Below, piece by piece: positions 6,447-36,676 of a stretch of 64,000 bases of DNA; the stretch's first letter is position 1, and each line of letters starts with the position of its first letter. This stretch comes from Macrolepiota albuminosa (Eukaryota > Basidiomycota > Agaricomycetes > Agaricales > Agaricaceae): positions 1,343-65,342 of the forward strand of contig JAMWFC010000027.1 of assembly GCA_027475525.1 (NCBI GenBank), given 5' to 3'. The position numbers were made by a program, and so were the translations under genes. The notes under the pieces are model-generated. The model was not told the origin of the DNA. It saw nothing but the letters and a program-made list of their open reading frames with translations, and made no database searches.

Positions 6447-6602
6447 GGTTAGGGCTTCATATATGTCATGACCCGCCCTCACCCTGGACACTGGAACTCT
6501 GCCTCAGGCCTCACCACTCTCTGGGTTAGGGCTTCATATATGTCATGACCCGCCCTCACCCTGGACACTGGAACTCTGCCTCAGGCCTCACCACTCTCTG
6601 GG
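6447..6602. repeat. 77-bp-period direct duplication (probable assembly artefact)
   Basis: Bases 6447-6525 recur perfectly at 6524-6602, an offset of exactly 77. The duplication includes the TGTCATGACC start of LTR E, so that start appears at both 6464 and 6541. Confidence 0.95.
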
Positions 6603-7254
6603 ACAACAGACTAGCACACCCAAAACTGACCCCGATCAGCCCCAATGGCCACCATCAGCCATTGGCATCACCCATCATCCTGGCACTGGCATCCATCAAT
6701 TTCCCTGGATGTCGGCTGACACATGACCCCTCAGCCCTGATCTCTGCCACCCAATCCCTGGCACTGGCTCTGACTCCCAGGCCTCAGCTGACACCAACTA
6801 CATGCTTTGGCTCTGACTCCTGGGCCTCAGCCAACACCAACCACATGCTTCAGGCCCAATGCCACCATCTGACCTGCACCCGTACACCCCATCAACACCC
6901 AAACTCCTTTGGACAACTCTTCGACATCCAGCCTCTCCTCAGACAACCTTGCCTGACTCCTCTTCAGATAGCACTTCAGCACCCCAAGACACCGACACTC
7001 CCTGGATACCAGGACCATCAACTAACCAGGCCCCCCACCCTGATGAGTACTTAAACCGTAGCTTGCATTCTATTACAGGAGCCTTGATATTGTCTAAACT
7101 TTTGCCCTTTGTCTTCGTCTACTTCAATTGATTGATTTCCCCACTCTCAAGTCTCAGTCTCTCAGTTCCTTTTCAGTGTCACTTTGCCCTCTACTCAGCT
7201 CCACTCCTCTTCATTGACCCTTGGACCCTGTCAGCATCCTCTCCCCCAGTCCCA
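6464..7254 (+). mobile_element. solo or truncated LTR E (Ty3/Gypsy type)
   Basis: Starts TGTCATGACC and ends CAGTCCCA, directly against the LTR of element A. It is C-rich and proline/threonine-like in translation but carries no protein. It shares the CTTGATATT core and general composition with the LTRs of D, D' and F, which suggests a related chromovirus family. True length is about 714 bp once the 77-bp duplication is removed. I found no convincing target duplication, and orientation is inferred from similarity to the plus-strand LTRs. Confidence 0.55.
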
Positions 7255-7565
7255 TGAAAATCTAGTGCTCTGTGTGAGCCCTGAAAAACCTCTGCACCTG
7301 AAACAATGTCAAGTGCTTAGAGTCACACCATAGAACCAGATTGATGTACAATTCAGTCCTACGAATAGTGTAACAAAAAGCTACCTTATGTAAGGTAGCA
7401 AGCAGTAATGAGTGTATGTAATATGTTATGTAATCTACCAATATAGCAATTATTACAGTACATACTACGCTGTGTAGTCTGGATCTTCTGAACAACATGT
7501 AGGTTGTTCAGCACAATACGGTGAAGGTTAAACCTAGCACTGAGGCTCTAGGTTGCTTGGTTACA
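7255..7565 (-). mobile_element. 3' LTR of element A
   Basis: On the minus strand it starts TGTAACCAAG (7565) and ends TTTTCA (7255). It is preceded on that strand by a polypurine tract (GAAAGGGGGGCA, complement of 7566-7577), as expected for a 3' LTR. Its layout resembles the shorter LTR of element B: a TGTA start, an ACATA-AGGTAGCTTTT-like segment and a CTCACACA stretch near the end. Confidence 0.6.
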
Positions 7566-7699
7566 TGCCCCCCTTTCAGACTAGTAACAGTCTCTAGAAG
7601 GGTGGCATCCACAATTGTCCCCATAACAACAGTAAAGTATCTTCTGTAGTTGGTAAGTGTCGAGGTTAGCCAACTATAACTAAGTACTGCTTGCTGTGA
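7566..7699 (-). other. element A spacer between ORF3 and 3' LTR
   Basis: Non-coding stretch containing the polypurine tract at 7566-7577. Nothing else was seen. Confidence 0.5.
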
Positions 7700-10000
7700 T
7701 TATGCAGAAGGTGGGCGGTACAGTTCACTCTTGAGGAAGGTGGCGATATCAACATCAGTGTTAGCCAAGCCAGCCACTCCCTTGAAAGAAAGCTTTGCTG
7801 ACTGGGACTCTATAGATGTAGGTGCAATTGGTGGGGGCAGTAGCGGTCCTTGGTGTGGACTGCGCATCCACAGATCGCGACAACAAGGCTCCATTCTGAC
7901 AGGGTAATAGAATCCTTCCTCAAGATATGTGTGACCTTGAGCAAATTCTCAGCCAAGTAAGGCCTGAAGGCAGATTACATTGTCCACAGTGGGGGTCCTC
8001 CAACCATCCCACTGTGGAATCACAGATGGCTCACCATAGATGTCAAGTCTACAGTGCTGTTTGTTGTCAACGTCCTGGTACATGTCCAATGATGTGTTGG
8101 ATGCTCAGAAATGGCTCTCCAGGTAGACCATGCTGAAAGCATAGGCATGGTCTATCCATTCTACTGGCACACAATTTGCTAGGAGGACTCTCAGTATGTC
8201 GGCATCACTGATGTTGGCTGACATTGAGTCATCAAAGTGTGGTGTCATGAACTGCATGTCAGTCCATGGCATTGGTGCAAATGGCTGACTGGGATTAGCT
8301 GCATTGTGAGCTTCAATAGCCTCACAGTACAGTCCAAGTCGTGCCATAATGAAGGCCAGCACCCTGGCAAAGTGGCTCTGGGGTCATCCTTGAGGTGATA
8401 CATCTTGAGTAATGGCGTGTCTCAGAAGGGTTTGGAGGTGAATGCAGAATGCATAGTCCATGGCAATGTCCAGGACCGCATTTATCATCCCTGGATGCGA
8501 GAAATACAGCACATTTTGTGCTAGGTGATCAAGGTCAAAGGTATGGCAAATACCTTCCGAATCAAATCCTGCAAGCGTGAATATGGGCTTGCTTCCCCAT
8601 CCTTTCCATTGGAGATACCCCTCTGGTGTGGGTAGGATAGCCAAGCCCATTCGATGGTCATGCAGGTCAAGGGGGGGAAGAATCTGTTCAAACTTAGAGC
8701 CACAGACCAGCTCCATAGTGGGATCCCTCCATGGTCAACTAAAATTCATAGAAATATGCTGGAATTTGCGCAACAGATAATAGGCCTCAATGTGCAGAGG
8801 CAGGGCCTTCATTCTGTTCTCAACTAGCATGAGCAATTTGCACACTTCTTGGAGGTTCATGGGAAACCCCTGCAGTGCAGTTTTCACCAACAGTATTGAG
8901 ATATGATGATACCTTGTTCTGTGTTTCTCCTCATGCTCTTGTGCCCACAGTGCCTCATTGCCCACAAAGACGGTGTTTGACAACTGCAAGTAATAGAAAT
9001 GGCGCTCTAATGCGCCACCAAAGAACCAATTTGACTGCTCTGTGGTGGTCCCCTCTCTGACCACTCCCAATCCTTCAGGGATACGCCCCGTGGCCTGCTC
9101 CACCATATCATGGTTGATCTTGGCCTGTTTGGCAGTGGCAGCCTTCTGACAAGAATCTGCCTTGCGGTTGCAGGTCAACTGCAAGTTCTTCTGCACCGCC
9201 GTCTCCCCTTCTGACGGAGTATCCTCTGCACTCAGTCTATAGTCACTGGCATCATCATCATTTGCAATGCCCATAGCCGCTAGAGTGGGGAGGCAATTCT
9301 CCACCTTGTCATCGGTATGCAAGTCTTTTCAAAGTATCTCTGGCACATACAACACATGTGGGTTCTCAAAGTGGATTTCAGGCAGGAAAAATATAATCTC
9401 CCTCGCTCCTGAGCTGAGTGGTACATTGTCCAGAAACTGCATCATTGACGCCTGCAAGGCCGTTTTTGGCTTGGTCATGGTCTTCACCATGTGTGGCACA
9501 TGCACCGACGAGCTTAGTCCCTGGTCCTCATCATCCACCATCATTTCATCCTCACCCCACTCCTCTGAGCAGGGTGTTACCTCTCCTGTCTCCCTGGTCT
9601 CAGGAGGCGCAACTGGTGCCTCCACCACCTGCTGGGTTCTGAGATGCTTTGCCTCAGCATGCTCCTCTGGCATCGTCGCTTGCCACTTGATTGCATTGGC
9701 AAATGTTTTGATAGTATTATTGTTATGCTGTTGTAGCATAACAATCTCATCCAGCAGGCCTGTGATCACCACCTGTGCCACCAGATCCTTCAGAAACTCC
9801 GAATCTGGGGGAAGTCGCTGCTCTGCAGCTACTAGCCGCTGCCACACCACCTCACTTTGAGGGTCAACCTCCTCCGCTGATGCCTTCCCTTTTTCCTTCT
9901 CACTAGCCAGAAATCTACGTGGGGATGGAGACCACTTACAAACTGGGGGTGACTGCAGTTGCAGGGGCAACCTTGGTTGTTGCAGCCTCTGCACCCTCAT
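7700..10000 (-). pseudogene. element A ORF3: long sense accessory ORF after integrase
   Basis: One reading frame of 767 codons runs from 10000 to a TAA at 7700-7702, broken only by five stops (9329-9331, 8735-8737, 8384-8386, 8105-8107, 7949-7951). All five are TGA, as expected if CGA arginine codons at CpG sites mutated. The product has a proline-rich start, a stretch with many charged residues (9.5-9.9 kb), segments such as QSNWFFGGALERHFYYLQL and a conserved-looking C-terminal half. It matches no Gag, Pol, chromodomain or envelope domain I know. It lies downstream of pol in the same orientation, the position of env in retroviruses, but I see no clear signal peptide or membrane anchor. A likely N-terminal part in another frame is at 10330-10545. 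A diverged relative follows pol in element B. Function unknown. Confidence 0.65.
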
Positions 10001-10329
10001 TCTACTTTGGTCTTCTCGATACGGTGGCTCCTCCCACCACCTGCCTACTGGCTCTTATGTGATGATGGCTCTCCTTGCCAGCTCTCATGGCAGTGACTGC
10101 TCTCCATCCCTTTGAGGTGGCATCACCTTGCTTTTTGTCCTCACTTCTCTCACTGGCGACTGTTTGCGCTCCCACTGCAATGGCCCCATCTCATTCTGCC
10201 TGCTCACTCCCTGCTTCTCATTGACTTCCATGGGAACCACCTGTTGTGCCTGTGGCACCATCATTTCCTACAGAACCTGCATCTGCATAGCCTGCTGCCC
10301 AGGTCCACTAGGACCTGGGTAAAATGGCA

Positions 10330-10545
10330 TCAGGTAATATGGAAAAAAAACAATGGAGCCTGCCCAAATTGAGCCATTGCCGGATATGCTGCCATACCTG
10401 GCATTGGTACTGCTGCACTAACATTACTCCTTGTTTGACATGTCTGCTGCTCCTGTTCCCCTCCCTCATCAGAACCCTGTGGGTTCTGTGTCTGCTGAAT
10501 TGGCATCTGCCCAGGAAAGGAAAACAACATCACTGTAGCTGACAT
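10330..10545 (-). pseudogene. probable N-terminal segment of element A ORF3
   Basis: An ATG at 10545 opens a 71-codon frame rich in Gln, Pro and Met, including PMPGMAAYPAMAQFGQAP. Element B has a similar segment after its pol (PAHYPGMGGVPIMMPYF near 20.46 kb), so the two are related. At least one frameshift and some stops separate it from the long frame beginning at 10000. No domain recognised. Confidence 0.5.
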
Positions 10546-10676
10546 GATGGTCTCCAGAGAAAAAAAAACAAGTTTATGTTTGTCAGGGTTACATAACCTG
10601 ATCTGACTCCACCAATTCCCATCACATCACTCTTATCATATCTGATCTGCTCCAGACCAGTCCAGACTTATCTCAT

Positions 10677-12557
10677 CTAAGCACGTGAGCACTTAGATAG
10701 CTGCCTTGGCTGTAAAACTCCCTGCAATTCCAAATACTGATCCAAAGCTGCCAGTTTTGAACATGTACTGAGCGACTCCCCTGTTGTGTCTTCCACACTC
10801 CACTGAACCTTGAACTCAAGGTTCCTACCATCCACCCACTGATGACCCATTATCTCCTCAACAAACCACTCCTGCTTATTACTCGCTCCAAAATCGTACG
10901 TCTCAGGCATTATCCAATTTGGAAACAAGGCATCATCATTTGCCTTGTAGGGTCTGAGCAATGACACATGGAACCTGGGCACAATTCTCCTTGCCTGCAA
11001 TGCTGCAGGCAATTCCAGTACATAGTTCAATGTGTGTGGGTCAGCTTCCAGGATCCTATAGGGTCTGATGAATTTTGAACACAACTTACTTGCCCTCCCC
11101 TTGAGAAGGTTCAAGTTCTTCATCGACAAGTACACTAACACGCCTTGCATTAGTTTCAGATCTGCCCTCCGCCGCTCATTTGCATGTTGAGTCTGAGAAA
11201 CTTGCGCTGCAATAATAGCATCATGTGCATTTGCCACATTCTCCAATGCTTGCCGTGCAAAGTCCCTTACACCTTTGTGCACCACCTCAACCCCCCTGAG
11301 TTCCCAAATCATGGAGGGCAGATACCCTCTATTTAGTTCAAATAGTGCAGATCGCAAATTTGGTCAGCAGGATCTTGTCCACCCAATCCCGTTGGTCAGG
11401 CCTGACCACTGTCCGGAATATCTGAGCCACACTATGATTGGCTTGCTCAGTCTGCCCATCTGTCTGAGGGTAGAACAATGTGGACATCAACAGTTTTGCT
11501 CCAAGCAACTTGTGCAGCTCACGCCACCATAGTGACGTAAACTTCAAGTCCCTGTCACTCACGATCGAGCTTGGGAGGCCATGAAGCCTCACAATATCCC
11601 TGAGGTAAATCTACGAAAGCTCAGAAGCTTTCATCATAGTGTGCACCAGGATCAAGTGCACCATGCTGGTCATGCAACAAATTATCACCCAAAGGTAATT
11701 AGATCCTTTGGCCTCTGGAAATGGTCCCACAAAGTTCATTCCAATGGAGTCCCATGGCTTCACTGAGATAGGCAGGGAATGCAGCCTCCTTGCAGGCTTC
11801 TGGTTACTAGTCTTTGCTCTCTGACATGCAACGCATGTCTGGCAAAACTTCGTAGCTTCTGTATACATCTGAGGCCACCAGTACCACTGCCTCAGATACT
11901 CCAGCATCTTGGCAGCTCCGAAATGGCCCACCATCTCATGAGCCTGCATAAGTATGGTGGTAATGAGGTTTCAATTTTGTAGCAGGCACACTACATCATG
12001 GTCACAAATATTTTGCATCCACAGCAGTCCTTCTGCATCTGCTTTGAAGCGTGGGTGATTGTCTGGGTGCTCCAAAACCTCAGAGCACAATGGATCCTTC
12101 AGGTACAACCATTTCATCCTGGCTCTAAAGTTGTCAGTGACTGCTGGCAGAGGCGCACTGTTGCCTCAGCAAGGGTCATTTCCCAAATTCTTTGCCCTGC
12201 TGGATCCCACTCCAGAACCTCCAGCTGTGGACTTGGACTCCGCTGTGCCAGCTTAAGATGTTCAGCTTCCAAGTCCCGTGCCTCATGCCTTTTTATTACA
12301 TGTTGGCTGCACCATAGCTCCCACATCTGCATTGCCTGTAGCTCTACCACATGCTCTTTGACTTCCCTGTATCTATGGTAGAGGAGATCGTCACCTTGAG
12401 GGTCAATGCGTATATCTGCATTGACATACTCATGGCTATCGTGGTATTCAGTAGCCCTATCACTTTCAAAATACCTTGAGAGACAGTCAGTGATTTTATT
12501 GAGCTCATCCTTGACATAAGTTATGTCAAACTGATACCGAGACATATAGTCAATCCA
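10677..12557 (-). pseudogene. element A pol remnant: RNase H end, integrase, C-terminal tail
   Basis: Ty3/Gypsy pol fragment read on the minus strand. It begins inside RNase H (WIDYMSRYQFDITYVKDELN, just under 12557), followed by an integrase HHCC zinc finger (VGHFGAAK, then CQTCVACQRAK, in 11611-11949), the DDE core (SIGMNFVGPFPEAKG, then IVSDRDLKFTS, 11338-11949) and a C-terminal region (VPRFHVSLLRPYKANDDALFP, then EWFVEEIMGHQWVDGRNL) like a chromodomain-type tail. Stops and frameshifts make it inactive. The 5' part (gag, protease, RT) is missing because element B begins at 12558. Confidence 0.8.
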
Positions 12558-12781
12558 TGTAGCATAGTCCACTATGTGGCGTTGGCCACATAGCTTTTAC
12601 TTAGTATAGACCTAGAATATTATATTATATTTATTTATAATATAATAATATTTACATAATTATAAATACATAGATACCTGCTGCTTACTAAGCAGCTTAA
12701 TTTGTGTTGATACTACATAGTCAATAGATCAGACTGGTCTGATTCTGTGCAGTGTGAACCTTAAGCTCTCACACACCTACA
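12558..12781 (+). mobile_element. 5' LTR of element B
   Basis: A 224-bp segment beginning TGTAGCATAG and ending CACACCTACA. It sits exactly where element A's RNase H frame stops, next to the pentamer ATCCA (12553-12557), the expected left half of a 5-bp target duplication. The centre is very AT-rich (12600-12680). The matching 3' LTR is absent because element B is cut by LTR C at 21590. Confidence 0.65.
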
Positions 12782-12888
12782 TTTTTTTGAATCTGCCAGC
12801 TAGGATCTATTGCCTAGCATCCAACGTCAGTCGCTAAGTTTGTTGACAGAACTCTATCAGCTTTTTGAGCTTCTTGTATAGCCACACC

Positions 12889-13582
12889 ATGCAAATTTCA
12901 AATAGAGGATCAATGAGTAATCCCATACCTGCAGTGTCCACTGACGGTGGGCAGATTGCCCATGACATACAGGAAGACCCAGCAGACATGCAGGATGCGC
13001 CAGCATCCAATGTGGGTCAGTCAAGACCCAAGGCTCAAGACCGAGGTCAGAGCACCGACCTGTCTGGGAATAAGAGTGAGGCCTGGAGAGCTGAGAGGCC
13101 AGCCACAGCCACAGGACAAGATGCCAGGGGGATTAACTCCCCCAGTTACGCAGCTGCCAGGAGGACTGCAACAGTCCAGCCAGCTAGCTTCCAAAGGGCC
13201 TCCTGATGAAGGCCAGCAGTTAACAGGTGTCCAGGGTGCCTCAGGAGACACTGAGTCATTGGTACAGACTGGGGGACCTATTCCTCTGAGCCAGAGTAGT
13301 GGGGCCAGGCAGGCTGCAGCAGGCTCAATGCCCACCAGAATAGTAGAAGCCTGCATAGAGGAGGTACTGGAGGAGGCTGCAATTCCTGAAGTAGCCCATG
13401 TGGAAAATCACTTCCCGCACACACCAGCAGTGGAGGAAGTCCTGGAGGTTGCAGAGCTTCCAGAGGAGGTGATTGAGTCATCTAGCAATGATGACACTGG
13501 AGCAGAGGAGCAGTGGTTGAAAATTGCGTACACTGTGCACTTGTGGGTGTTCTGGGATCTATACCCAGAGGTGATGAAATAA
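12889..13582 (+). pseudogene. element B gag, N-terminal acidic/Pro-rich region
   Basis: Frame 1 runs from ATG 12889 to about 13160 and then appears to continue in a second frame to the stop at 13582. The conceptual product is rich in Gln, Pro, Glu and Ser with no known fold; its end is acidic (EVLEVAELPEEVIESSSNDD). Its position directly after the LTR suggests the start of gag. The link to the gag core at 14029 is broken. Confidence 0.45.
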
Positions 13583-13731
13583 ACCACCCAGGCGTGACTC
13601 AAGCGTTACGCTTCAGCGCATATAGTAGCACTTAGGCGACAAGGGCACAAAGTACCCAATGTATTCAGTACTAAATATACTGATTTGATGGTAAGAATTC
13701 TCACTATAGAACTGCAAATGTATTTGCAGTA

Positions 13732-13885
13732 GAAGGCCACAAGGCAATTGGAGGTGTTGACTCTCTGGAGCCACACGTCTGAGGAATGCTCGGCACATCA
13801 TAATCAAGGAAGGCCACAAGGCAATTGGAGGTGTTGACTCTCTGGAGCCACACGTCTGAGGAATGCTCGGCACATCATAATCAAG
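13732..13885. repeat. 77-bp direct duplication (probable assembly artefact)
   Basis: Bases 13732-13808 are repeated perfectly at 13809-13885, with an offset of 77. It lies between the gag N-terminal frame and the gag core of element B. Confidence 0.95.
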
Positions 13886-14028
13886 ATGTTGGAGTTGAGC
13901 TAGTGGAAGCACTAGCACGGGTGCAGGAAGTGCCCAAAGTAAAACTGGTGAGTACCTTCTATACTCCAGCAGGACAAGGGTGGCATGAGGAGCCCCCACA
14001 CATGCGTAACTAAGACCTTAGGACAGAG

Positions 14029-15497
14029 ATGTCAGGCCCGAATGGACACAATAGTACTGCGTTTAAGGTTGAAAGTGAGGCATCTGTGATGCTGCATGTG
14101 CCAATGGCAGACATGTTGAGTGACAGAGTTGCATATCAATGTATGCGCAATGACAACCTCAGGACTAAAAGACAGTCTCTTATTGATGATCAAGGCATCA
14201 TATTCAAGGGCATTAAGCCCATTGACGAGATGTGTCGTCAGTTCATAATGCAGGGCCAGGAGAATCAAGCTTCTCCAGAACCAGGGTGGCACAACAATCA
14301 TGATCAAGGAGACTTCCTCGATCGAGATGGTGCCACCAAATGTGATGCCCCTGGTAACGGCCAAGATGAACACCCTAGGTCGATTCCCTGAGATGAGGGC
14401 AATTATGCCCACAGTCGAGGAGGCTCAGGACATCTGCCGCAAGATGGACGAGAGAAGTCACTTCCCCAAGCCGCTGATTTAGCGACTAGATCTCCAGGCC
14501 AGTAGGAGGCCATCTGGATGCATTGTGAAGCCATGCACAATTGCCTGTATTGAGTAGTCGATGATGCCCTGGGAGTAACCTTATGGTTATCAGATGGGGT
14601 GAAGCTGTGCAAAGCAGATAGTAGGCACATTCACACCTACACAGGCGCATCCAAGTTCAGTGACTTGGAGGACTGGGCAATGGATGTATGTACCCACCTC
14701 GCCATGTGCTTATATGGAGGTGACCATATGGAGCGAGAGTGAATCTTTGTTCTGCCCGAGTTTTTGGCTGGAGAGGCCATGGGGTGGTTTCAACAAGCAG
14801 TGTTGCATGTCAACCGGGTCCAGTATGAGTAGACGTTCAAGAGAGTCCTTACAGGACTGTACAATCAATTTGTGCACCCCTCAACGCTACAGGATGCAAG
14901 GCGGAACTTCCAGTCCACCAAGTACACTGAGAAGTTGGGAGTACAAGGGTTCTACAATACCCTTAATGACCATGCCCAGAACATGGCAGTATACCCAGAC
15001 GGGTATATGATGCTCAAAACATTCTTGGATGGTATTCCAGCAGACATGCACTGCTATTTGATACGTGAGGACGGGCTGTCCCCAGAGGTCAACAATGTGG
15101 AAGAGTTTGTGGCGTACACCATCAGGTATGAGCAGTCTCTTAAAACTGCTAACCACTATGAGCATCGTAGTGGCCACAAAGGGGGAAGCAGGCGACTACC
15201 ACCTGCTGGAGCACCCTCACGGGGTCAGCATGTGGGGACCTTCTTGGCCAAGAAGGCCAACTTGGATTGTGACCGCAATACACAGTTTGTGGTATGCAGA
15301 ACTCCTGCAGCAAATCACAACTGGAGTGGGCACTGGACAGAGAACATCCTAAGCCAAGGCCAGAATTCAAGCTGACCAACCCACCTGGTCAGACGGGGAC
15401 CTGTTTCGCATGCAGCCAGCTAGGCCACTATGTCACCAATTGCCCTGCAAAGACAGGAGCCCCAAGAAAGGGGTATACACCCTATGCCCATCTTTGA
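14029..15497 (+). pseudogene. element B gag core and zinc knuckle
   Basis: Broken Gag-like reading frames. 14029-14391 gives a start MSGPNGHNSTAF. The 14660-15375 frames contain a retrotransposon-Gag type segment (STLQDARRNFQSTKYTEKLG, then VNNVEEFVAYTIRYEQSL). A CCHC zinc knuckle CFACSQLGHYVTNC (15402-15443) matches CX2CX4HX4C. Gag would form the virus-like particle and bind element RNA. Several stops and frameshifts make it inactive. Confidence 0.75.
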
Positions 15498-15596
15498 GCT
15501 GCACATACTGCAGCCACGAGTGGGAGTGATGGAGACATCTCCACCAAGTCTGAGGCTGAGCACCTCACAAATAACCAAAAGCCCCCAGAGGAGGCA

Positions 15597-16232
15597 TTGG
15601 GCACCGAGCCTGAGAGTGTGGTCGTGGAGGGGGAGGAGTATGTCACAGTCAACGTATATGATGACGTCTACAACAACAAGTACTACAGTTATGACAGCAA
15701 CTCTGAGTGCCTAGTGGCAATGACGGATTGGCCGTCCTCAAATGATCATGACAAAAATAATGTTGTTCAGATGAAGAAGGTGACTCTTTGTCAAGCAGAG
15801 GGCACTTTGCAGTGCCCTACATTGAAACAGGCAGACAAGAAGTGTCTGGTCTCATATGTGGATGTAAATGGCCACAAAGCCTGGACTTTATGGGACTCCA
15901 GGAGTATTACTTTGGGTATAATGCCCCAGTTTGCCCACGTGTACAGAATTTCCATACAGGAGTTAGATATGCGGTTGGCATTGCAGCTGGGCACCGTAGG
16001 AAGCCATGCTATGGTGCAGTATGGGACGAATGTAACTGTCCAGACACCGAGCTCACATAGCCAGGAATACATGGATATAGTGAACTTTGATCGCTATGAT
16101 ATAATACTGGCAACATCATTCATGTGGCATAACAAAGTCATGCTAGACTTTGAGCACTGTCAGGTGCTAGTGAATGGGAAAGTGATCCCGGCTAAATGGG
16201 CTACAGCAGACGACACTGATAATTGTCTGTGA
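15597..16232 (+). pseudogene. element B aspartic protease region
   Basis: A 211-codon open frame. SYVDVNGHKAWTLWDSRSIT holds the catalytic Asp, but the expected D-S/T-G reads D-S-R, so the active site is altered. YDIILATSFMWHNKVMLDF matches the second conserved segment of retropepsins (ILG-x-x-x-L). It is followed by an interrupted linker to RT at 16.2-17.05 kb. Confidence 0.65.
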
Positions 16233-17073
16233 CATTACCACACTATGGAGAAGCGCAAGAATTCTCCATGACTTGGCTGGCGCAAAGTGCTGGCGGTAGA
16301 GGATGTAGATGAGGAAGTACAGGCTATGCCTGGGCTGAGCTCAGACCACAACGTGGTGATGATGAGCGAGGAGGAATATCAAGCCTCCAAGATGAGAGAT
16401 GAGCAAATACTCACTCCTGATGTTTGAGGCACAAAGCTTCCAGATAGACAACAGCAAAAGGCAAAAAAGCCTGAGGACTCAGTGGATGTATGCCCACCTA
16501 CGTCCTCCCAAGTCAAGTTAGATGACTTGAGAGACAGCAACCAAGAGGTGGAAGCCTCATATTGTGAAGACATACAGTCCTTATGGGAGCGACCAGCTCC
16601 CTTTCCTGAGTACAACTGGGCATACAATCCTTGAATGCTGCAGGAGTGGAACAAACTGGTGGCAGCCACATGTGCATGAAATGCACACCAGCAACAGACA
16701 ACCATCACACCAGCATATCACCAGCCAGCTTTGGACGAAGTGTCCATAATGTATTCACTCATATGCAAAGAAACAAGCCTTGTGGCTCGTAAGGCAGTAG
16801 TAGTGGATCTTCCGCTGAGACTGCATATACCCAATGACAGTGTTACTTGGATGCTCGCAATTTGCGAGCAATATGCACTGCAGCCTCAGCCACCATCAGA
16901 AATGGTGGAGGTACTTCCCCTGGTGCATCTGAAGGGGAAACAGAAGGCGACAAGCCTTTGTGAGGGCCACCATCAGAAATGGTGGAGGTACTTCCCCTGG
17001 TGCATCTGAAGGGGAAACAGAAGGCGACAAGCCTTTGTGAGGAAGACAGCAATGGCAAGAAGAATTTGCCGAT
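16233..17073 (+). pseudogene. element B protease-RT linker, degraded
   Basis: Fragmented pol linker. It includes a Pro/Leu-rich piece with a palindromic look near 16.89 kb and the 77-bp duplication at 16889-17042. No separate gene was seen. Confidence 0.45.
16889..17042. repeat. 77-bp direct duplication (probable assembly artefact)
   Basis: Bases 16889-16965 equal 16966-17042, offset 77. It lies in the pol linker of element B just before RT. Confidence 0.95.
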
Positions 17074-19076
17074 ATGGTCAATGGGACCAAGGAGGAGCTC
17101 CCACCATGGCAGGAAGTGAACCATGAGATTAATCTCATAGACGAGAGCAAGCAATACAAGTATCACTTGCTGCACTGTCTACATGCACTCCAGGAGCAAT
17201 TACATGATAAAACTAATTGCTATTTGAATGCTCAGTGGTGGTCACCATGCACCACTGCTCAGGCTGCACCATTATTATGCATCCTGAAGAAGGACAGAAC
17301 CCTTCAAACAGCTCTTGATGCATGTCAGCACAATGATAATACCATAAAGGATGTAACTCCTTTACCAGATGAGGAGGTGATCTGGGAAGACGTGGCTTGA
17401 GCAAAGTATTGCTCAAAGATTGACCTTACTGACGCCTATGAGCAGGTGCGCATTTGCACCAAAGACGTACCCAAGACTATGTTTGCCTCGATCATAGGCA
17501 CGTTTACGAGCAATATAATGCAGATTGGGGACTGTAATGCCCCCGCAATCTTTCAGAGGCTAATGACCTCTATGGCACGTTTACGAGCAATATAATGCAG
17601 ATTGGGGACTGTAATGCCCCCGCAATCTTTCAGAGGCTAATGACCTCTATATTTCAAGACATAATAGGACACTTTATGCATGTCTACTTAGATGATATAT
17701 TCATCTATTCGGATTCCATGGAAGAGCATGAGCAGCACCTCAGAGTTGTATTCGAATGACTATGCAAGTACAAGTTGTACTTGAAATGGAAAAAGTGTGA
17801 GCTTTATGCTCAAAGTATAGACTGCCTAGGGCATGTCATCAATGAACGGGGCATCCACTCTGATCAGGACAAGCTTGACCACATTTGGGAGTGGCGCACA
17901 CCACAAAACTACAATGACATCCAACGATTTGTTGGCCTTGTCAACTACATATTGAGCTTCTTGCCCGACGTCACTGCCTATACTGGGCCACTTATGGCCA
18001 TGACACAGAACGGGTCACCATTCAACTGGAGGCCGCTGCACCAGCAGTGCTTCAAAATGGTCAAAAAGATCTGTACAAAGACTCCAGTTATTTGACCAAT
18101 TGACCCTAGACGGGACGAGCCTATTTGGCTCATTTGCGATGCATCTAAGACAGGCGTAAGAGCCATGTATGGCCAGGGAAGTAGCTGGCAGACTTGCTGG
18201 CCAGCTGGGGTCATGTTGAAGAAGTTCACGACTACCCAGCAAAACTATGCTGTGCACGAGCTAGAGACCCTAGCTATCCTCGAGGCCCTCCTCAAGTGGG
18301 AGGATAAGCTGATGGGATATCCCATCCATATTATAACCAATCACAAGGCGCTTGAGTTCTTCAAAACTCAGGTGAACTTGTTGCCACATCAGCAATGGTG
18401 GATTGACTACATGTCAAGATACCAGTTTGACATCACCTATGTTAAAGGTGAACTCAATAAAGTGGCGGACTGCCTGTCTTGCTACTTTGAGAATGATGTA
18501 GTCAGAGAGGTTCATGAGCCTCACAAGTACATGCAGGCAGATTGCCACATAGACCCAGACAGGGAGGATCTCCCTCTCCACCAATACCAGGAGATCAGGG
18601 AACATGTCTTGGACATACATGCAATGCACAATGATGAACACAGGCGAAGTACTTGCCTCAGGGCACAGCATGAGAAGCGGGACTTAGCTGCCCAGCTGCT
18701 CAAGGAGCATGAAGTCAGGGAACCAGCATCAGCTGGGGAACCTGAGCACCCCAATCAACCCTTCACTTTGGCTGAAATACTGGAAGGCGAATTGCCTTTG
18801 TCCCAGCCACCTAGCCTGGGCAACGACAACTTCCGTATGGAAGTGGTGCGGGAGTATGAACATGACTCTCTTTTTGCCAAGATCATCACCAATCCTGACA
18901 ATCATCCTCAGTTCAGGCAGGGGCCTGACGGACTGATCACAACGGCAAACTGTCAAGGAGTGGCAGTGGTTTGCCTTTCCTGTACGCAAGTGACTGTAAC
19001 ATGGGTACTGGACCAGGCCCATGCCCTAGTGGGGCACTTTGGTGCTGCACAGACATTGGGATATATCCATAGATGA
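17074..19076 (+). pseudogene. element B reverse transcriptase and RNase H
   Basis: RT motifs are visible in order: SKIDLTDAYEQVRI, a CNAPAIFQRLMTS segment, and the catalytic YLDD (17685-17696) in HVYLDDIFIYS. Downstream come FVGLVNYILSFLPD and the RNase H region (WLICDASKTGVRAMYGQG, YAVHELETLAILEALLKWED). Stops remain at 17398-17400, 17758-17760 and 18093-18095. The frameshift after LMTS is caused only by the 77-bp duplication at 17497; with a single copy the RT frame runs on directly to the YLDD box. Inactive. Confidence 0.85.
17497..17650. repeat. 77-bp direct duplication inside RT (probable assembly artefact)
   Basis: Bases 17497-17573 equal 17574-17650, offset 77. Counting one copy only, ...RLMTS is followed in frame by IFQDIIGHF and then the YLDD box, as in all Ty3 reverse transcriptases. 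This is the clearest evidence that the second copy is not real. Confidence 0.96.
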
Positions 19077-20212
19077 TATTGGTAGCCATGAAGCTGCCCC
19101 CTGGAGTTCCGGCTGGGAAGCTACACCAGCTACCCATGCCGGTAAAATCTTGGGACTCCATTGGAATGGACTTTATAGGTCCCTTTCCCTAGTCTAGAGG
19201 ATTTGACTACCTCTGGGTGGTTATATGTCGCATGATGAGCATGGTGCACCTTATACCGGTGCACATGATGCTGATGGCTAAGGAGCTGTCATGGATCTAC
19301 CTCAGGGAGATTGTTAGGCTGCATGGGCTGCCTAGTACCATCATGAGCAACTGTGACTCAAAATTCACATCGCAATGGTGGAGGGAGCTCCACAAGATGT
19401 TAGGAGCTAGACTCCTCATGTCGACATCATTCCATCCTCAAATGGATGGGCAGACTGAGCGGGCCAACTGCAGTATAGGTCAGATCCTGAGGACAGTTGT
19501 CTGCCCTAATCAACAAGACTGGATGGACTGGTGTCCACTCACTGAGTTTGCAATTAATGCAAGTATTTTGGAGACGACAGGGTACACACCCTTTGAGCTC
19601 AATGGAGGGTACTTGCCCTCCATGCTGCACAAAATTCGTGCGGATGTGGTAGCCCACCGAGGCGTAGTTGAGTTTGCCAGGAAGGCCCTGGAGAATATCG
19701 CGGAGGCGCATGACACCATCATTGAGATGCGAGTCTTACAGGTGAAAAATGCCAATCACTGTAGGCAAACGGATCTGCCCATATCAGTGGGAGTGTTGGT
19801 CTACCTGTCAACATGTAACCTGAGGCTTCCAAAGGGACAGGCTAGTAAACTATGCCCAAAATGGGTAGGCCCATACTGCATGCTAGACACAGAGCCAAGT
19901 ACCTCCAACTATGTGCTGGAGCTGCCTCAGGCATTACAGGAACGACAAATCATTCCAAAGTTTCATGTGTTGCTGTTGCGACTATATAGCGTGTCAGACA
20001 ATGCGTTATTTCCTAATAGGGCAGCTCCAGGCCCCTATGACTTTGGGGCACAAGACAATGATGAATGGTTTGTTGAGTGCATCATAGGGCACTGGTGGAC
20101 TGAGCAGAATACACACTCAAGTTTGAGGTACAATGGTCCCTTGGGGACACAACATGGAAGCCATACTCCCATTGCTCCAAGCTGGCAGCACTTGACTGTT
20201 ATTTGGAGTTGA
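19020..20212 (+). pseudogene. element B integrase and C-terminal tail
   Basis: HHCC-finger start HALVGHFGAAQTLGYIH is followed by stops, then a 331-codon open frame (19217-20212). That frame has the DDE core (HMMLMAKELSWIYLREIV, then IMSNCDSKFTS with the expected Asp region altered, then HPQMDGQTERANCSIGQILR) and the C-terminal KFHVLLLRLYSVSDNALFP segment. It is closely similar in order and wording to element A's integrase, so A and B are the same family. Confidence 0.8.
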
Positions 20213-20328
20213 AGGGCGTTAAGCACCCACATTAGTTAAGTAAGTGTGCCGGTGCTCAATTTGATCAGCAATGCTGATTGCAGCTTGGCTGAGTTGGTCA
20301 GAAACTGTGGCTGAGACATGTCTAAAAT

Positions 20329-21589
20329 TTGAAATTTCTTTTTTCCCTTTCTTTCCTCAACCATGGACCAGGACATTCAGCAGCAGCAGCACAGCTTGCC
20401 TCTGTACTGGCAACAGGGCCAATGGGGGCACATTCTTTTCCCCAGTTTACTGCCCCAGCGCACTACCCTGGCATGGGTGGTGTGCCCATAATGATGCCGT
20501 ACTTCCTGGCTTGGATGGGAGCTTGGGGCGCAATGTCCCAGTACAGTGCCTCATATGAGGTGCCCACCAAGGGAGGAAAACTGACCTCCCAGACGGCAAA
20601 GACTGCCAGCAAGAGCACAGAAGCTCTCAATACCAAACAAAGCAGTAAGTCTCTGGCCAATGCACCAACAAAGAGCCTGTCCAGGCTCTCCTTGTTACAG
20701 CGGCTGGAGATGCTGCACCAACCTGAGCCCAGCTCAGAAGAAGAGTCATGTCCTTGACGTGACAAAGGAAAAGCATGGGCTGTTGAGCCCAGTCTCAACC
20801 AGGACTTAGTCCTGGCTACCCTCCTTCAATGCCTGGGAGACAATGGGTACGATGTACCTGCAGACTTGTCGTTCCTCCGCAATGCAGAGGCTGTCATCCT
20901 CATCAGTCAGATGATGGACAATATGGATCACATGCGCACTCAGCGCAGATCTCCTTGCCTTATTGGCTGCTTATAAGCGGCAGACTACATCCCCAAGTTG
21001 GGACACCGACTCCAGCAAAAGGGCACATCGGCAAGAAGTAGAGGATGTGCCCTCCTGCTTGACTCAGTCAAGCGTTGCCATTCCCAGCCAGAAGGCCAGT
21101 CTAGGGCAGGACATTCTTCCCTATGAAGATGTCCCTGCTCCAGCCGCCCCCCAGCTGATCTAGCACCTCACTAGTGGCGCATCTGAGGTCGCATCCTCAT
21201 GACCATTATCCATGATATCCACCATGCACTCTGGAAAGGAGAGTTCCTGGGGCGTCAGTACGCGCCCCACTGAGGCAAAGGCCTCACAACCCCAAAAAGA
21301 TTGTCGGGGTAAGAACCCAAAAGGGCACGCATACGTTAACATGCACTTCCCTGAGGATGCCCCAAAAGAGGCCTCAGAGGCTAACATCCCCTTCTTACCT
21401 GCTGTATTGGTAGAGGGCCCTCCTGCCCAATACCCTCAATGTGTGTGGGCGATGGACCCACGTTTGGAGACAACTGGTCAGGAGAGGCTGCCATCCCCAC
21501 CCTCCGATGACAAATGGTATGTGGAGCCTGAAGAGGCTCATATGGAATCCCTGGTGCTGCACAAAACTGCGGCACAATGTATGGCGCGC
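20329..21589 (+). pseudogene. element B ORF3: sense accessory ORF after integrase
   Basis: Starts about 120 bp after the pol stop. The frame from 20329 reads through with a few stops (TGA at 20755-20757, then TAA and TGA) to about 21.1 kb, and an open 126-codon frame follows at 21212-21592. Shared features with element A ORF3 include the PAHYPGMGGVPIMMPYF segment and a VPADLSFLRNAEAVILISQM segment that parallels LPPDSEFLKDLVAQVVITGL in A. No known domain. It is cut off at 21589 by LTR C. Confidence 0.5.
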
Positions 21590-25363: not shown

Positions 25364-25517
25364 TTGCGAGTGTTTTCTGGCGCCATCGAGGAGATGAGTG
25401 ATGAGGATCATGGAGATGAAGCGCTTATCTTGGACTATAATTGCGAGTGTTTTCTGGCGCCATCGAGGAGATGAGTGATGAGGATCATGGAGATGAAGCG
25501 CTTATCTTGGACTATAA
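25364..25517. repeat. 77-bp direct duplication (probable assembly artefact)
   Basis: Bases 25364-25440 equal 25441-25517, offset 77. It begins only 54 bp after the previous duplication, between the protease and RT parts of element C. Confidence 0.95.
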
Positions 25518-27621: not shown

Positions 27622-27866
27622 CCTCGACCATATCAGGCATCATTAACTTTTTACACAGCCAGTATCTATAACATTGCTAAGCCATCTAATGATCTAAAAA
27701 TAGTTGAGGAACCAAGACCCTTGCGAGAAGACAGTCAAAACCTGCCATATTTGGCAGTACCTCAAAGTGCCAAAGCTAAGTCAGAAGATCAGCAAGTTGA
27801 CCAGGTTAGGAAGTGGCTACAGGATTTGCGATGACTATCAGACCTTACAGATACAGAATACGCCAC

Positions 27867-28384
27867 TGTCAGGGGACCCCTCAATTCCCTTCTTCTTTCA
27901 CTCCTTATTCTTCACTCTCCTTTCATTCACTTCCTTATTTCTTCTACCATTCTCTCATTTTGCTGTTACTACTTCTTCGACACTATCTGTTGGTACTATT
28001 CTCAACCTTTGAGGTGCTCTGGTTCTTTAGCTATCACTCAGACAAGTGTGGGCCCTTCAGCACCGCTCCAGGCTGCTTAGATAAGCCGGAGTTTGCCTTT
28101 CTGACTTCTAAAGTCCGGAGTTTTCCTCCCTTGTTTGCACACTTGTTTGGTTAGTCAATTTTCGAGTTTTTAAGGTTTTGTTGTACTGTACAGTTGTTTC
28201 CCATGCTTCAGAGGCCCCAGAAGCGTCCAACCTGGCATAGGGAATCCCCAGACTTGTTCTCTTTGGATCTCCCTCTGCCAGGTGAGTAGCTACCTTGATA
28301 TTGTCAGTATATATTCTAATACACTTTGGATCTCCCTCTGCCAGCTGTGTGACTGAGCCACAGCCTCTAGAGGTCGCCCTTACA
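27867..28384 (+). mobile_element. solo LTR G with perfect 5-bp target duplication
   Basis: 518 bp starting TGTCAGGGGACC and ending CCTTACA, flanked on both sides by GCCAC (27862-27866 and 28385-28389). Removing it and one GCCAC rejoins element C's pol frame (DTEYATF then FFIVEDQLW), so it is an insertion into C that later recombined to a solo LTR. It has an internal 21-bp repeat (CTTTGGATCTCCCTCTGCCAG) near 28259 and 28325. Confidence 0.88.
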
Positions 28385-29674: not shown

Positions 29675-30162
29675 ACGCATACGAAAAACAAGGCACTAGC
29701 CGTTAGCACCCTCCTTGATTGGATTTAGGCAACATGACAACTATAAAAGAATAAATAAATGGGTGATATTAATACAAAATGGACTAGCAAACCGAGTTTG
29801 GCTACAAAAGCTACGAAATGGAGGAAGACCTACGGCGAGGACCCTTGACTCGGTCCTTGTGTTGCCTATAGGCAGAAGGAGTGCTGGAAGGGGGACGCAC
29901 CGCAGCACAAGGCGGCATGGGAGGAGCGCTGGGAGGGGGAGGAACCGGAGCACTAGGAGGAGGTGCGGGAGGAGCCCCCATAGGTGGAGCATGGGAAGCG
30001 CCCAGAGGAGCGGCGGAAGGAGCAGAGGATGAGTACCACCCATCCTCATCTGGGTGGGACCCTAAAGCCGTAAAGAGAATGATCAGGCACATGAGCACAG
30101 CTCTATGAGCGCTGAGGTTAACAAGAGTGGGCAGGGGGAGCCATGAGAGGCTCTAGAAAGCG
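29675..30162 (-). other. spacer between integrase and antisense gene
   Basis: Contains an open proline-rich minus-strand frame (30098-29811) ending in PRRRSSSIS. It could be a further 3' exon of the antisense gene, reached by an alternative donor in its last exon, or its 3' untranslated region. Otherwise no feature. Confidence 0.4.
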
Positions 30163-32526: not shown

Positions 32527-32664
32527 GTTGGAAAGATGGGAAGGAAAACACGAGAAGGTGAAGGGCTAAAAAACGATTTTTATAAGGCGCCGGCGGCATT
32601 CTACGGACCGTAGCGCAGTCAAATTAATGACGGTGTTTGACTGAGGACAGTCAATTTTTCAGTT

Positions 32665-32673
32665 GGGGGGAGA
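32665..32673 (+). other. polypurine tract of element C
   Basis: GGGGGGAGA directly before the TGATAGG start of the right LTR, the expected plus-strand primer site. A similar G-run precedes the LTR at 52424. Confidence 0.75.
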
Positions 32674-33742
32674 TGATAGGCTTCTACTCGGACTGAGCGC
32701 ATCAAGGGACATTATAGGCCAACTGACACTTGACGTACGCAGGACTCTGGCGACCAGTTGGGAGTATAGAGCAGCTCTAGCTCTGGCAAACTACTACAGG
32801 ATTTAGAAATTTATCCTAACCCCTAGCTACCAAGCCTTCAGCACTCTCCTTTCACCTAGCCCAAGGACGAAGGAGGCTCATAACGTATAGCGCTAACACG
32901 ACGGCGGGAGAGGACTATAACTAAACCCCGATCACTTCCAGAAGGAGCCAGCAGCAGGCGCTGCCATTAGACGAGGCACTTCAATCAGAAGTCTAAAGGG
33001 ATCAATGACGGCGGCACCGGATATACTTAAATCCGACATCTGGACCTGACAGGAACTAATACAATGAGTAGCGCTGACATTAGCGCTCACGGCGTCTGTC
33101 GAGGATTTTCCGACCATACCCCAGAACAGCCTGGCCAATTGGAGTTATAGAAAAGTGAGCAGACTCGTACAACTCTAAGTCAATATAGAGTCACCGCAGG
33201 TCGCCGTGGGTCATAATGCCGTTGGTCGCCGTCAGCCATGTGCACAAGGTCGCCGTTGACAGGTCGCCGTTAGAGTAAACCACGAGGAGAGGCGCTAGGA
33301 GGTAGCGCTGCAGATGGACTTGTATCTTGGCAAACACGGTAGCGCACTGTATATAAAATAGCTACTTTTCATGTATATAACAACGAATCGTAACCCCTCG
33401 AGCAAACAGTTACACTCAGCGTTACACTCGCGCTAGCCTCCTTTGACTTCGTCACTAAGTCGGGCGCTAGCTTCGTCTGTCTCGTCTTCATTGTTTACGG
33501 TGCCACCTACGGGCACAATACACGGCGCTATTTGTCTTTTCTCCAATATCTTTGCCTAAACTACGACGCTTACCGTCTGCCAGGTAGCCCCCGAAGCGCT
33601 ATAATCTAGCGCATCGTTTACTACCTCCACTCGAGCACACCGGGACCCTGTCAGGACTCCTCACACCTACGCACGCCAAGCGCTGGAGACGGCGTTGTAC
33701 TGCGTATACGTCCAGCGCATCCAACCACAGTTGGCGTCATCA
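32674..33742 (+). mobile_element. LTR C2 (right LTR of element C)
   Basis: 1069 bp, TGATAGGC...GTCATCA, preceded by the polypurine tract. It retains many CpG sites that have become CA or TG in LTR C1, and many AGCGCT motifs. It abuts the gag of element D at 33743. Confidence 0.8.
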
Positions 33743-33984
33743 GCGGCTTTGCCTGAAATGTATTGAGACACTGAGTGAGGAAGGTACACCATTTTTGGGG
33801 GTCCCGGCCCGTGAAAGCGTCGGGCTTTTGGATGTCCAATCGTCCTTTGCGGGCGAGGGGGTCGTGAGCGTCGTCCGGTCCGGCAGCGTTGCGGGGAGGA
33901 GGGCCAGCATTGTAATAGTAGTAGTAATGATTACCCCCCCCTCCTTGAGAAGGAAAAGCACCAAGGGCGGGGCCCCACCTGCCG

Positions 33985-34138
33985 GGAGGACCTCCTCCGG
34001 GTGGCTCACCTGGGGGTCCACGCCCGGGAGGCCCGTTGTCCCAGGGGGGCTCGTTCCTGCCGGAGGACCTCCTCCGGGTGGCTCACCTGGGGGTCCACGC
34101 CCGGGAGGCCCGTTGTCCCAGGGGGGCTCGTTCCTGCC
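33985..34138. repeat. 77-bp direct duplication (probable assembly artefact)
   Basis: Bases 33985-34061 equal 34062-34138, offset 77, in the proline-rich part of element D gag. Collapsing it brings the gag core (YYYYNAGPPP then DIQKPDAF) into the upstream frame. Confidence 0.95.
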
Positions 34139-35116
34139 AGGAGGAGGGCCGGGTCTCCACGCGGGGGGCAGCGGGGGTGGAGGGCCTGGGGGTCGTCCTC
34201 GAGGTTCGGCTGGGGGTGGCGGAGGCGGTCGGGGAGGGTTCAGTGGTGTCGGGTCGATTGGAGGGGGGCCGGGTGCTGGGTCGGGTGCCGGGTGGCGCGG
34301 GGGTTGTTCAGCCCGGGAGGGTCGTGCTTGCATCGGGGGTCGCGGGGGGTTTCGTAAGTCGAAGTGGGGTGGTGGGTCGCGACGGAAGTTGGGTTCCGGA
34401 GGGGCCAGGGCGGACGTGGGGGGCGGTGCTGGTGCCCGGGCGGGCACGGGCGTGGGACGTTGTTCGTTGTTGTCGCATGTGAGCTCGTCGATGTAGCATA
34501 GCGTGTCGTCCGTACTGGGGGTGTCCGCCCGGGCTCTACTGGGGTTCGCCGGGGGCGGAGGTCAGGCGTTGTCCATTCGCGGGAGGGGTTCCAGGGGTCT
34601 CTGGGGCTGCCCCCAGGTCTCGAAGGTACTAGGAACGGAATTAGCCCTGCGACGAGTTGACAAGCCTACCGTGCGGGCAGCGGGTTGGTCGAAAAGGCCT
34701 CCAGTCAGGTTGAGGGACCGTAATATGGCTGAGGCGTTCTGCCGTTCTTCCCGTTGTCGTTGCTCCGGAGTGGGGACCGTGGGGGCTGCCGGGACTGCTG
34801 GGGCCGGTTCCGGGGGTTCCCGTCGAATGTGAATCGAGCGACCTGGGTCCGCGGGGTCGTTGAGGGGCCGAGGGGAGGGGGACGCGTGGACTTCGTCGAG
34901 CAGTTGCTGTAATTCTTCCCGGAGGATCGTATTGCGCCTATACTTTACCATGGTTTGCTCCGGGAGTTCTCCTCGCGTGAGGCGATCCCCAAATTCGACC
35001 AGGCAGTGAGCCCATTCCTCCGGAGTGCCTTCGAAGTCGTCGTGTCCGAATTCCACGAGCAGCGTCCTTGTCCGTTGCGCGAAGTTCTCTGGCGAGATCC
35101 TGAGGGAGCGGAGTAC

Positions 35117-35271
35117 CTCGTCCCGTTGCCGTTCATACTCCTCGAGGCGTCGTCGTCCCATTGGCGAGGGAGGGGTTCGAGCGGGTGGAGCGGCTCGTCC
35201 CGTTGCCGTTCATACTCCTCGAGGCGTCGTCGTCCCATTGGCGAGGGAGGGGTTCGAGCGGGTGGAGCGGC
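35117..35271. repeat. 77-bp-period direct duplication (probable assembly artefact)
   Basis: Bases 35117-35193 recur at 35194-35270 (one more base also matches), offset 77, in element D gag at the RRLEEYERQRDE segment, which therefore appears twice. Confidence 0.95.
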
Positions 35272-35472
35272 AGCTGGGTAATGACGAGGGGGGTAGTCAG
35301 GGTAGGGGGGTCCTCAGGGTTCTCGGGGTTGGGGGACGGGGCGCTGATAACCGTAGTAGGGGGTAGGTGCAAAGGGGCCCTCGCTGGGGGAAATCGGGCG
35401 AGGTCCACTGGGTACAGGTGGGGTCTCCGGCAGGCCCCCGGGGATGCTCCGGTATGAGGGGACCTCCATGGG

Positions 35473-35626
35473 TCGTGCCATGGCTAAGTTGGGCGGAGGG
35501 GCCCAGCTGGCTGAGGGCCCCAGGTCATAGAGGGACGGGTCGGGGGCCCTCGTGCCATGGCTAAGTTGGGCGGAGGGGCCCAGCTGGCTGAGGGCCCCAG
35601 GTCATAGAGGGACGGGTCGGGGGCCC
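35473..35626. repeat. 77-bp direct duplication (probable assembly artefact)
   Basis: Bases 35473-35549 equal 35550-35626, offset 77, near the N terminus of element D gag (APPPNLAMA segment). Confidence 0.95.
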
Positions 35627-35928
35627 AGTGGCGGTGGAGATATTGAGGTTCATACAGGAGAGGTGGATAGACGGGGCGGGGGGTCTGCGCGGAGTAGTGA
35701 TCAGGTACCGGGCGTCCGTAAGGGTCGGTCTGGTACCCCGTGGGGTAGTAAGTGTGAGTATACGTAGCCATCAAGAACGGTGTAAGGAGGGAGTCTTGAT
35801 ATTATGTCAGGTTCCGCTGAGTCGGGGGCTTTCCGGGAAAGCAACGCCCTTACAATGCGGACTTGACCTACAAATACTCGGGTGTCTGGAACTCCGGGGC
35901 TAGGACTCCAGGGTTCAAGACGAGGACA

Positions 35929-36082
35929 GGGGTAATCCCGGGATAGGGGACTAGAGTCCGGGGGTTTTGGGTTGGAGGTAACTGAGGTTAAAGGGGGTCG
36001 AGTCGGGGGTAATCCCGGGATAGGGGACTAGAGTCCGGGGGTTTTGGGTTGGAGGTAACTGAGGTTAAAGGGGGTCGAGTCG
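35929..36082. repeat. 77-bp direct duplication (probable assembly artefact)
   Basis: Bases 35929-36005 equal 36006-36082, offset 77, inside the LTR of element D. The homologous LTRs at 41056 and 53610 have only one copy of this segment. Confidence 0.96.
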
Positions 36083-36520
36083 TGAACCGGAGGTTCTAAG
36101 ACGAGACCAAGTTAGTAAATCAAGAGTCGTGAAGTGCGTACCAAAACTTAGAGCACGCGAATACTTAGGTGTGCCAGTCAAAGTGTACCAATCAAGGCGT
36201 ACCAGTCAAGCAAAAGGGCACGCAATAACCAAAGTAATATCAAGACTAGCGAATACAGCAGAGAACTACACTATAAGTACTACGGATTGTGTCTCGGGAT
36301 TCCGGGATGTCTGGGATGAGTTCCGGGGGTCATTGAGTAGCGGTCAGGGACTGTATACCGGGATCACGCGTGTGGGGACGCGCGATCAATTGGCACGGAG
36401 GGAGTCGTGATGCGTGGGGCGTGATGCGTGATGGTTGGATGCGAGCCGCGTGATCTGATTGTTGATGGCGGTTGATCCCAGGGTCCGTGATGCAGGGGTC
36501 CCGGGGGGCTGGCTGATGGT

Positions 36521-36676
36521 GGTCATTGATGCGTGTGATGGCGGCGTCGGCAGTTGTGGGGGCGGGGTGCGCTGTGGGATTGACGGAAGAGGTTCCCGGT
36601 CATTGATGCGTGTGATGGCGGCGTCGGCAGTTGTGGGGGCGGGGTGCGCTGTGGGATTGACGGAAGAGGTTCCCGG
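36521..36676. repeat. 77-bp-period direct duplication (probable assembly artefact)
   Basis: Bases 36521-36599 recur at 36598-36676, offset 77, near the start of the element D LTR. It is absent from the other D-family LTRs. Confidence 0.95.

What the first reader, a model, noticed from the sequence alone, without database searches (positions are those of the whole stretch)
6447..36676. Eleven direct duplications with an identical 77-bp period, only in repeat DNA
Perfect tandem copies start at 6447, 13732, 16889, 17497, 25154, 25364, 33985, 35117, 35473, 35929 and 36521, every one offset by exactly 77 bp, with matching length 77 to 80 bp. Independent biological duplications would not share one period. 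A fixed 77 is the usual largest k-mer of common short-read assemblers, and joined contigs that overlap by k but are not merged give exactly this. 77 is not a multiple of 3, so each adds a false frameshift. Removing one copy at 17497 restores the RT frame into the YLDD box, and those at 33985 and 35117 restore element D gag.
Basis: partly seen in the sequence, partly recalled or inferred. Interest (0 to 1): 0.88.

Follow-up and report, generated by a model that had tools for sequence, protein, structure and literature searches.

The report
Genome-wide 77-bp assembly-join duplications
The exact 77-base tandem copies are almost certainly errors made when a genome was pieced together from short overlapping words of 77 bases, not real DNA, and they occur elsewhere in this fungal assembly, in ordinary genes too.

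Summary
All 11 exact duplications exist at the stated coordinates. Each has period exactly 77, and no other exact tandem period occurs in the window. The pattern reaches beyond the window: 20 systematic 10-kb samples from three other contigs hold 33 exact period-77 duplications and 4 near-exact ones, and the only other exact tandem array is one of period 14. A second haplotype of the locus (contig C73, 97-99% identical) lacks all six window duplications that it covers. It also gives a de Bruijn-graph signature. Where the duplicated 77-mer is shared exactly with the allele, an allele difference sits immediately beside it in 4 of 4 cases, against 118 of 5456 (2.2%) shared 77-mers at large. Counting repeat families, 6 of 7 informative cases fit. 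Best explanation: graph edges overlapping by k=77 were concatenated without trimming. 'Only in repeat DNA' fails genome-wide: two duplications queried lie in single-copy sequence, one inside an AMP-binding-enzyme ORF. I could not check reads, or name the assembler or organism. Not a biological feature; its interest lies in assembly quality control.

The parts
6447..6602 (.). exact 77-bp tandem duplication (matching run 79)
   Evidence: absent from allele L049; allele difference at +1 for the placement shifted by 1; 77-mer also once in C73
13732..13885 (.). exact 77-bp tandem duplication (run 77)
   Evidence: absent from allele L049; allele difference at -1; 77-mer also once in C73
16889..17042 (.). 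exact 77-bp tandem duplication (run 77)
   Evidence: absent from allele L050; allele differs inside the 77-mer, so the boundary test is uninformative
17497..17650 (.). exact 77-bp tandem duplication (run 77) inside a reverse-transcriptase-like region of a retroelement
   Evidence: absent from allele L050; allele difference at -1; 77-mer also once in C73
25154..25310 (.). exact 77-bp tandem duplication (run 80)
   Evidence: absent from allele L051; allele difference at -1 for the placement shifted by 2; the unshifted 77-mer occurs nowhere else in the assembly
25364..25517 (.). exact 77-bp tandem duplication (run 77)
   Evidence: absent from allele L051; allele differs inside the 77-mer, uninformative
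33985..34138 (.). exact 77-bp tandem duplication (run 77)
   Evidence: boundary not examined
35117..35271 (.). exact 77-bp tandem duplication (run 78) in a high-copy element
   Evidence: 77-mer at 60 other places; boundary differences; the shifted word is also duplicated in 1 of 19 fetched copies
35473..35626 (.). exact 77-bp tandem duplication (run 77)
   Evidence: boundary not examined
35929..36082 (.). exact 77-bp tandem duplication (run 77)
   Evidence: a related stretch in L051 is single here but differs inside the 77-mer
36521..36676 (.). exact 77-bp tandem duplication (run 79)
   Evidence: boundary not examined

Best explanation
The duplications are assembly artefacts built on a 77-base word. 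A de Bruijn graph was made from accurate reads of a heterozygous, repeat-rich fungus. Edges of that graph meet at shared 77-base words, and each neighbour carries that word in full. At many places two neighbouring pieces were written one after the other without trimming the shared word, so it appears twice. Shown here: the fixed 77 in every exact case, near-zero divergence between copies, absence from the second haplotype, and word edges at sites where copies of the sequence diverge (6 of 7 informative cases). Inferred: the graph convention (most simply SPAdes-type with final k=77), the step that failed (path or scaffold joining), and later polishing that altered a few copies. The stated confidence is for an artefact based on a 77-base word; I put the untrimmed-join form at about 0.65 and the first rival, a variant of the same, at 0.3.
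For: (1) Single period: 11 of 11 in the window. In 20 samples of 10 kb on C110, C114 and C65, 33 exact period-77 runs and only one other exact tandem array, period 14. No exact stretch at any other lag from 40 to 120 in the window and L002-L028. (2) Run surplus is close to chance around exactly 77. (3) Allele C73: aligned pieces 97.3-99.0% identical over window 5269-30176, and BLAST alignments break with a net 77-base overlap at 6 of 6 duplications covered. (4) Boundary signature: for the 4 window words shared exactly with the allele (13732, 17497; 6447 and 25154 within their placement slack), an allele difference lies at -1 or +1 in 4 of 4; base rate 118 of 5456 shared 77-mers in window 5269-20470. 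At 35117 the base at -1 is C in the window and T in 15 of 19 fetched copies, and +1 for the placement shifted by 1 is A against G in 19 of 19; base rate 3 of 78 on the left side, 1 of 1 on the right. That shifted word is itself duplicated exactly in one other locus, L034, as expected if a graph vertex is the cause. At L017:6370 the word starts where the left flanks of copies become unrelated; 1 of 8 fetched copies shares the exact word. (5) Seven copies of the RT element elsewhere carry their own 77-bp duplication, at other phases (three shown); the query favoured duplicated copies. (6) A duplication lies inside an AMP-binding-domain ORF in single-copy DNA, the second copy out of frame. (7) Literature: CheckV (PMC8116208, passages seen) reports terminal repeats at 55, 77 and 99 bp and attributes them to assembler k-mer lengths; Unicycler (PMC5481147, passages seen) says it removes overlaps at contig ends created by SPAdes.
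Against: At L023:6474 the word is shared exactly by 5 of 7 fetched copies and none of the 5 differs at -1 or +1; only 7 of the 40 places scored were fetched. Two allele-covered cases (16889, 25364) are uninformative because the allele differs inside the word; 33985, 35473 and 36521 were not examined. A graph vertex alone does not explain why 17 of 19 fetched copies of the 35117 word show no duplication. The contigs are up to 6.5 Mb and the samples hold no N, so a plain short-read assembly is unlikely and a hybrid or scaffolding step has to be assumed. Some period-77 copies are not identical: L003:100, L010:6954, L010:7688 and L045:115 differ by 1 base, L016:7902 by a 1-base G-run length, L017:9428 by 1 base in the part shown, C73 L051:1793 by 2 bases. 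L024 has two weak lag-77 stretches (79% and 70%) within a diverged tandem array that also shows lags 79 and 114. No reads were available.
Confidence: 0.96

Rival explanations
1. Technical artefact of another kind: a gap-closing, long-read-correction or local-reassembly step using a 77-base word (or unitigs with k=78) inserted the extra copy at each locus, rather than concatenation of contigs.
For: Duplications are locus-specific: 17 of 19 fetched copies of the 35117 word are single. Large contigs without N in the samples suggest a hybrid or gap-filled assembly.
Against: Nothing here separates it from untrimmed edge joining; both need a 77-base word as the unit. It is a variant of the same explanation.
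Confidence: 0.3
2. Real duplications made by an enzyme with an exact ruler, e.g. paired staggered nicks 77 bp apart followed by fill-in and joining, active in one haplotype.
For: Per-locus, exact length, found in transposons and in single-copy DNA. A process with a fixed offset would give a constant period.
Against: No period of 76 or 78 among the 54 full-length runs. The copies are almost all identical although the elements that hold them differ by about 2-21%. Word edges coincide with differences from other copies in 6 of 7 informative cases, which an enzyme could hardly know. An enzyme ORF in single-copy DNA is hit.
Confidence: 0.01
3. Old satellite or minisatellite arrays of period 77 in transposons.
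For: Tandem and of constant period.
Against: The 11 window units are unrelated to each other by eye; copies are nearly always two; phase differs between copies of one element; the allele lacks them.
Confidence: 0.003

Closest known systems
k-mer-length terminal repeats left by assemblers (CheckV, PMC8116208, figure legend seen: peaks at e.g. 55, 77, 99 bp)
   Same: Exact direct repeat whose length equals an odd assembler word, 77 among them; not biological.
   Different: There the two copies sit at the two ends of one contig from a circular template. Here they are internal, tandem and numerous in a eukaryotic assembly.
Overlaps at SPAdes contig ends that Unicycler trims (PMC5481147, passage seen)
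   Same: Neighbouring graph contigs share sequence at their ends and must be trimmed before joining.
   Different: Here the trimming seems to have failed at some junctions; the assembler of this genome is not known to me.
False duplications from uncollapsed haplotypes (recalled, no call)
   Same: Arise from heterozygosity; C75 and C73 look like such a haplotype pair in this assembly.
   Different: Those are long allelic segments, not 77-bp exact tandem copies.

Membership tests
untrimmed k-mer-overlap assembly artefact | one fixed length throughout the assembly, equal to a plausible assembler word | tested here: met
   77 alone among exact duplications, apart from one period-14 array, in the window and in 20 samples of three other contigs (200 kb of 100 Mb); not tested on the whole assembly
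untrimmed k-mer-overlap assembly artefact | copies identical at creation | tested here: met
   33 of 37 period-77 runs in the samples reach 77 or more; the other 4 are near-exact with one difference each in the parts shown
untrimmed k-mer-overlap assembly artefact | duplicated word is a branching vertex (copies diverge at the base next to it) | tested here: met
   6 of 7 informative cases; base rate 2.2% against the allele; L023:6474 did not meet it
untrimmed k-mer-overlap assembly artefact | absent from a second assembled copy of the locus | tested here: met
   6 of 6 window duplications covered by the C73 allele
untrimmed k-mer-overlap assembly artefact | absent from raw reads | not testable with these tools
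   no reads held
untrimmed k-mer-overlap assembly artefact | pipeline used a k=77 (or 78) graph | not testable with these tools
enzymatic fixed-length tandem duplication | position independent of which words are shared with other copies | tested here: not met
   edges fall on copy differences in 6 of 7 informative cases

The most novel reading that the evidence does not exclude
A real molecular process with an exact 77-bp ruler duplicates DNA in genes and transposons of this fungus, with edges placed next to polymorphic sites, for instance through mismatch-directed nicking in heteroduplex DNA.
Probability: 0.01. Interest if true: 0.9.

Novelty: not a real feature. Interest (0 to 1): 0.15.

Why it matters
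If the sampled rate held (37 per 200 kb, on three of 129 contigs and uneven), the assembly would hold very roughly 18,000 such joins and about 1.4 Mb of false sequence. Because 77 is not a multiple of 3, a coding exon that contains one shows a false frameshift, so gene models, pseudogene counts and transposon integrity from this assembly should not be trusted before correction. A scan for exact tandem repeats of one odd period is a cheap test for this fault.

Tried and rejected
Rejected: microsatellite or minisatellite (units unrelated between sites); inherited duplication in an element family (phase differs between copies; 17 of 19 copies of the 35117 word are single); a rule that every passage of a given graph word is duplicated; 'only in repeat DNA' (the tool warns that it skips very common words). 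The self-comparison understates repeats because it uses only held loci.
Full report
What is there. The window holds 11 exact tandem duplications, all of period 77 and at the coordinates given. No other exact tandem period between 15 and 999 passed the same threshold. The window is C75:1343-65342 of an assembly of 100,137,612 bases in 129 contigs. It carries Ty3/gypsy-type retroelement pieces (RNase H-like and Tf2-1-like SH3 domains) and an F-box-like ORF. From these and other ORFs I infer a basidiomycete; no call names the organism.

How far it reaches. Twenty 10-kb stretches taken at regular steps on C110 (10), C114 (9) and C65 (1) hold 33 exact period-77 runs of 77-80 bases plus 4 shorter runs of 58-74, which are near-exact 77-bp duplications with one difference each in the parts shown; 9 of 20 stretches have at least one. 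The only other exact tandem array was one of period 14. Over the window and L002-L028 together, lags 40-120 gave 55 exact stretches at 77 and 0 elsewhere; imperfect tandem repeats exist at 12 other lags, and L024 has two weak ones at 77. The surplus of the 54 full runs over 77 is close to chance extension, so one fixed length of 77 explains them. The seven other copies of the RT region fetched (L002-L008) each carry at least one exact 77-bp duplication of their own, at other phases (three alignments visible). They were found with a query that itself holds the duplication, so that sample is biased towards duplicated copies.

The second haplotype. Exact-word searches for 6447, 13732 and 17497 each returned the two window copies and one place in C73, in the same order. 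C73:1219501-1229500, 1238501-1245500 and 1245501-1255500 were read; 1229501-1238500, inside an insertion, was not. They align to window 5269-30176 in pieces of 97.3-99.0% identity, with gaps, among them about 0.5 kb of the window near 27.9-28.4 kb that has no counterpart. C73 is an allele or haplotig of this locus. Alignments break with a net 77-base overlap at 6447, 13732, 16889, 17497, 25154 and 25364: the allele has one copy at 6 of 6. The pieces of C73 have duplications of their own: L050:776, 1034 and 1124 inside the insertion that the window lacks, L051:9388, and an imperfect one at L051:1793.

The signature. In a de Bruijn graph an edge ends at a word whose neighbours differ between copies. 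For the window words shared exactly with the allele, there is an allele difference at -1 for 13732 and 17497, at +1 for 6447 (placement shifted by 1; run 79 allows 0-2) and at -1 for 25154 (shifted by 2; run 80 allows 0-3): 4 of 4. Of 5456 shared 77-mers in window 5269-20470, 118 (2.2%) are so bounded. Allowing for the placements and assuming independence, four of four by chance is of the order of 1e-6 (my arithmetic). 16889 and 25364 say nothing because the allele differs inside the word. For 35117, with 60 other exact places, 19 were fetched: -1 is C in the window and T in 15, C in 3 and G in 1; the second base to the right is A against G in 19 of 19, which is +1 for the placement shifted by 1; the local base rate is 3 of 78 on the left and 1 of 1 on the right. 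One of the 19 (L034) has an exact duplication of that same shifted word, one (L045) a duplication at another phase with one mismatch, and 17 none in the 277 bases read. At L017:6370 the word begins where flanks become unrelated (1 of 8 fetched copies shares it exactly). At L023:6474 five exact copies of seven fetched show no difference at -1 or +1. In all, 6 of 7 informative cases fit; 33985, 35473 and 36521 were not examined, and 35929 was uninformative.

Not only repeats. The searches with L009:829-1210 and L015:4097-4477, around the duplications at L009:979 and L015:4247, found no match in the assembly but the place itself. L009:979 is inside an ORF with an AMP-binding domain, and the second copy reads in another frame. 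Other duplications lie in the same 10-kb stretches as RPN6_N, DEP, 2OG-Fe(II) oxygenase and M13-peptidase ORFs; I did not place each relative to coding exons. By comparison with held loci alone, 16 of 37 sample duplications lie in sequence seen elsewhere, a lower bound for repeats.

Frames. At 17497 the RT-like reading changes frame across the duplication, while the allele keeps one frame across that point and has stops elsewhere. I did not remove copies to test restoration. The two ORFs at 33740-35209 (-) have no Pfam match at E 0.01, so the gag claim is not confirmed.

Mechanism. Shown: the fixed word length, locus-specific occurrence, absence from the allele, and edges at divergence points. 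Inferred: edges of a k=77 graph were concatenated untrimmed at some junctions, and some copies were later altered by polishing. The sequence cannot tell k=77 edges from k=78 unitigs, nor contig joining from a gap-closing step. Large contigs without N in the samples point to a hybrid or gap-filled assembly. That SPAdes uses 77 as a usual last k is recalled, not from a call. CheckV (PMC8116208, passages) reports repeat-length peaks at e.g. 55, 77 and 99 bp as likely k-mer artefacts, and Unicycler (PMC5481147, passages) trims overlaps made by SPAdes at contig ends.

Verdict. An assembly artefact, seen in the window's contig, C73, the three sampled contigs and other contigs that gave loci. Biological interest is low; practical interest for anyone using this assembly is real.

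Noticed in passing
window 5269-30176: C75 looks like a second haplotype (haplotig) of C73 around 1219501-1255500, aligned pieces 97.3-99.0% identical, so the assembly keeps both alleles at this locus.
   Followed up: partly
window 15289-15293; L049 from 9846, L050 to 1965: C73 has an insertion of about 11 kb here, flanked by a 5-bp repeat GTGGT, with ends TGTC...GACA, as expected of an LTR retrotransposon; it is absent from the window haplotype. Its middle was not read.
   Followed up: partly
L009-L028: Duplications are unevenly spread: 7 of 10 sampled stretches of C110 carry them, but 1 of 9 of C114; cause unknown.
   Followed up: no
L051:1793-1946: An imperfect 77-bp duplication in C73 whose first copy equals the window haplotype and whose second differs by 2 bases, perhaps a trace of polishing with reads of both haplotypes.
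   Followed up: partly
L017:9329-9562: An exact 77-bp duplication is followed at once by a second, near-exact period-77 stretch, so part of the unit is present three times.
   Followed up: partly
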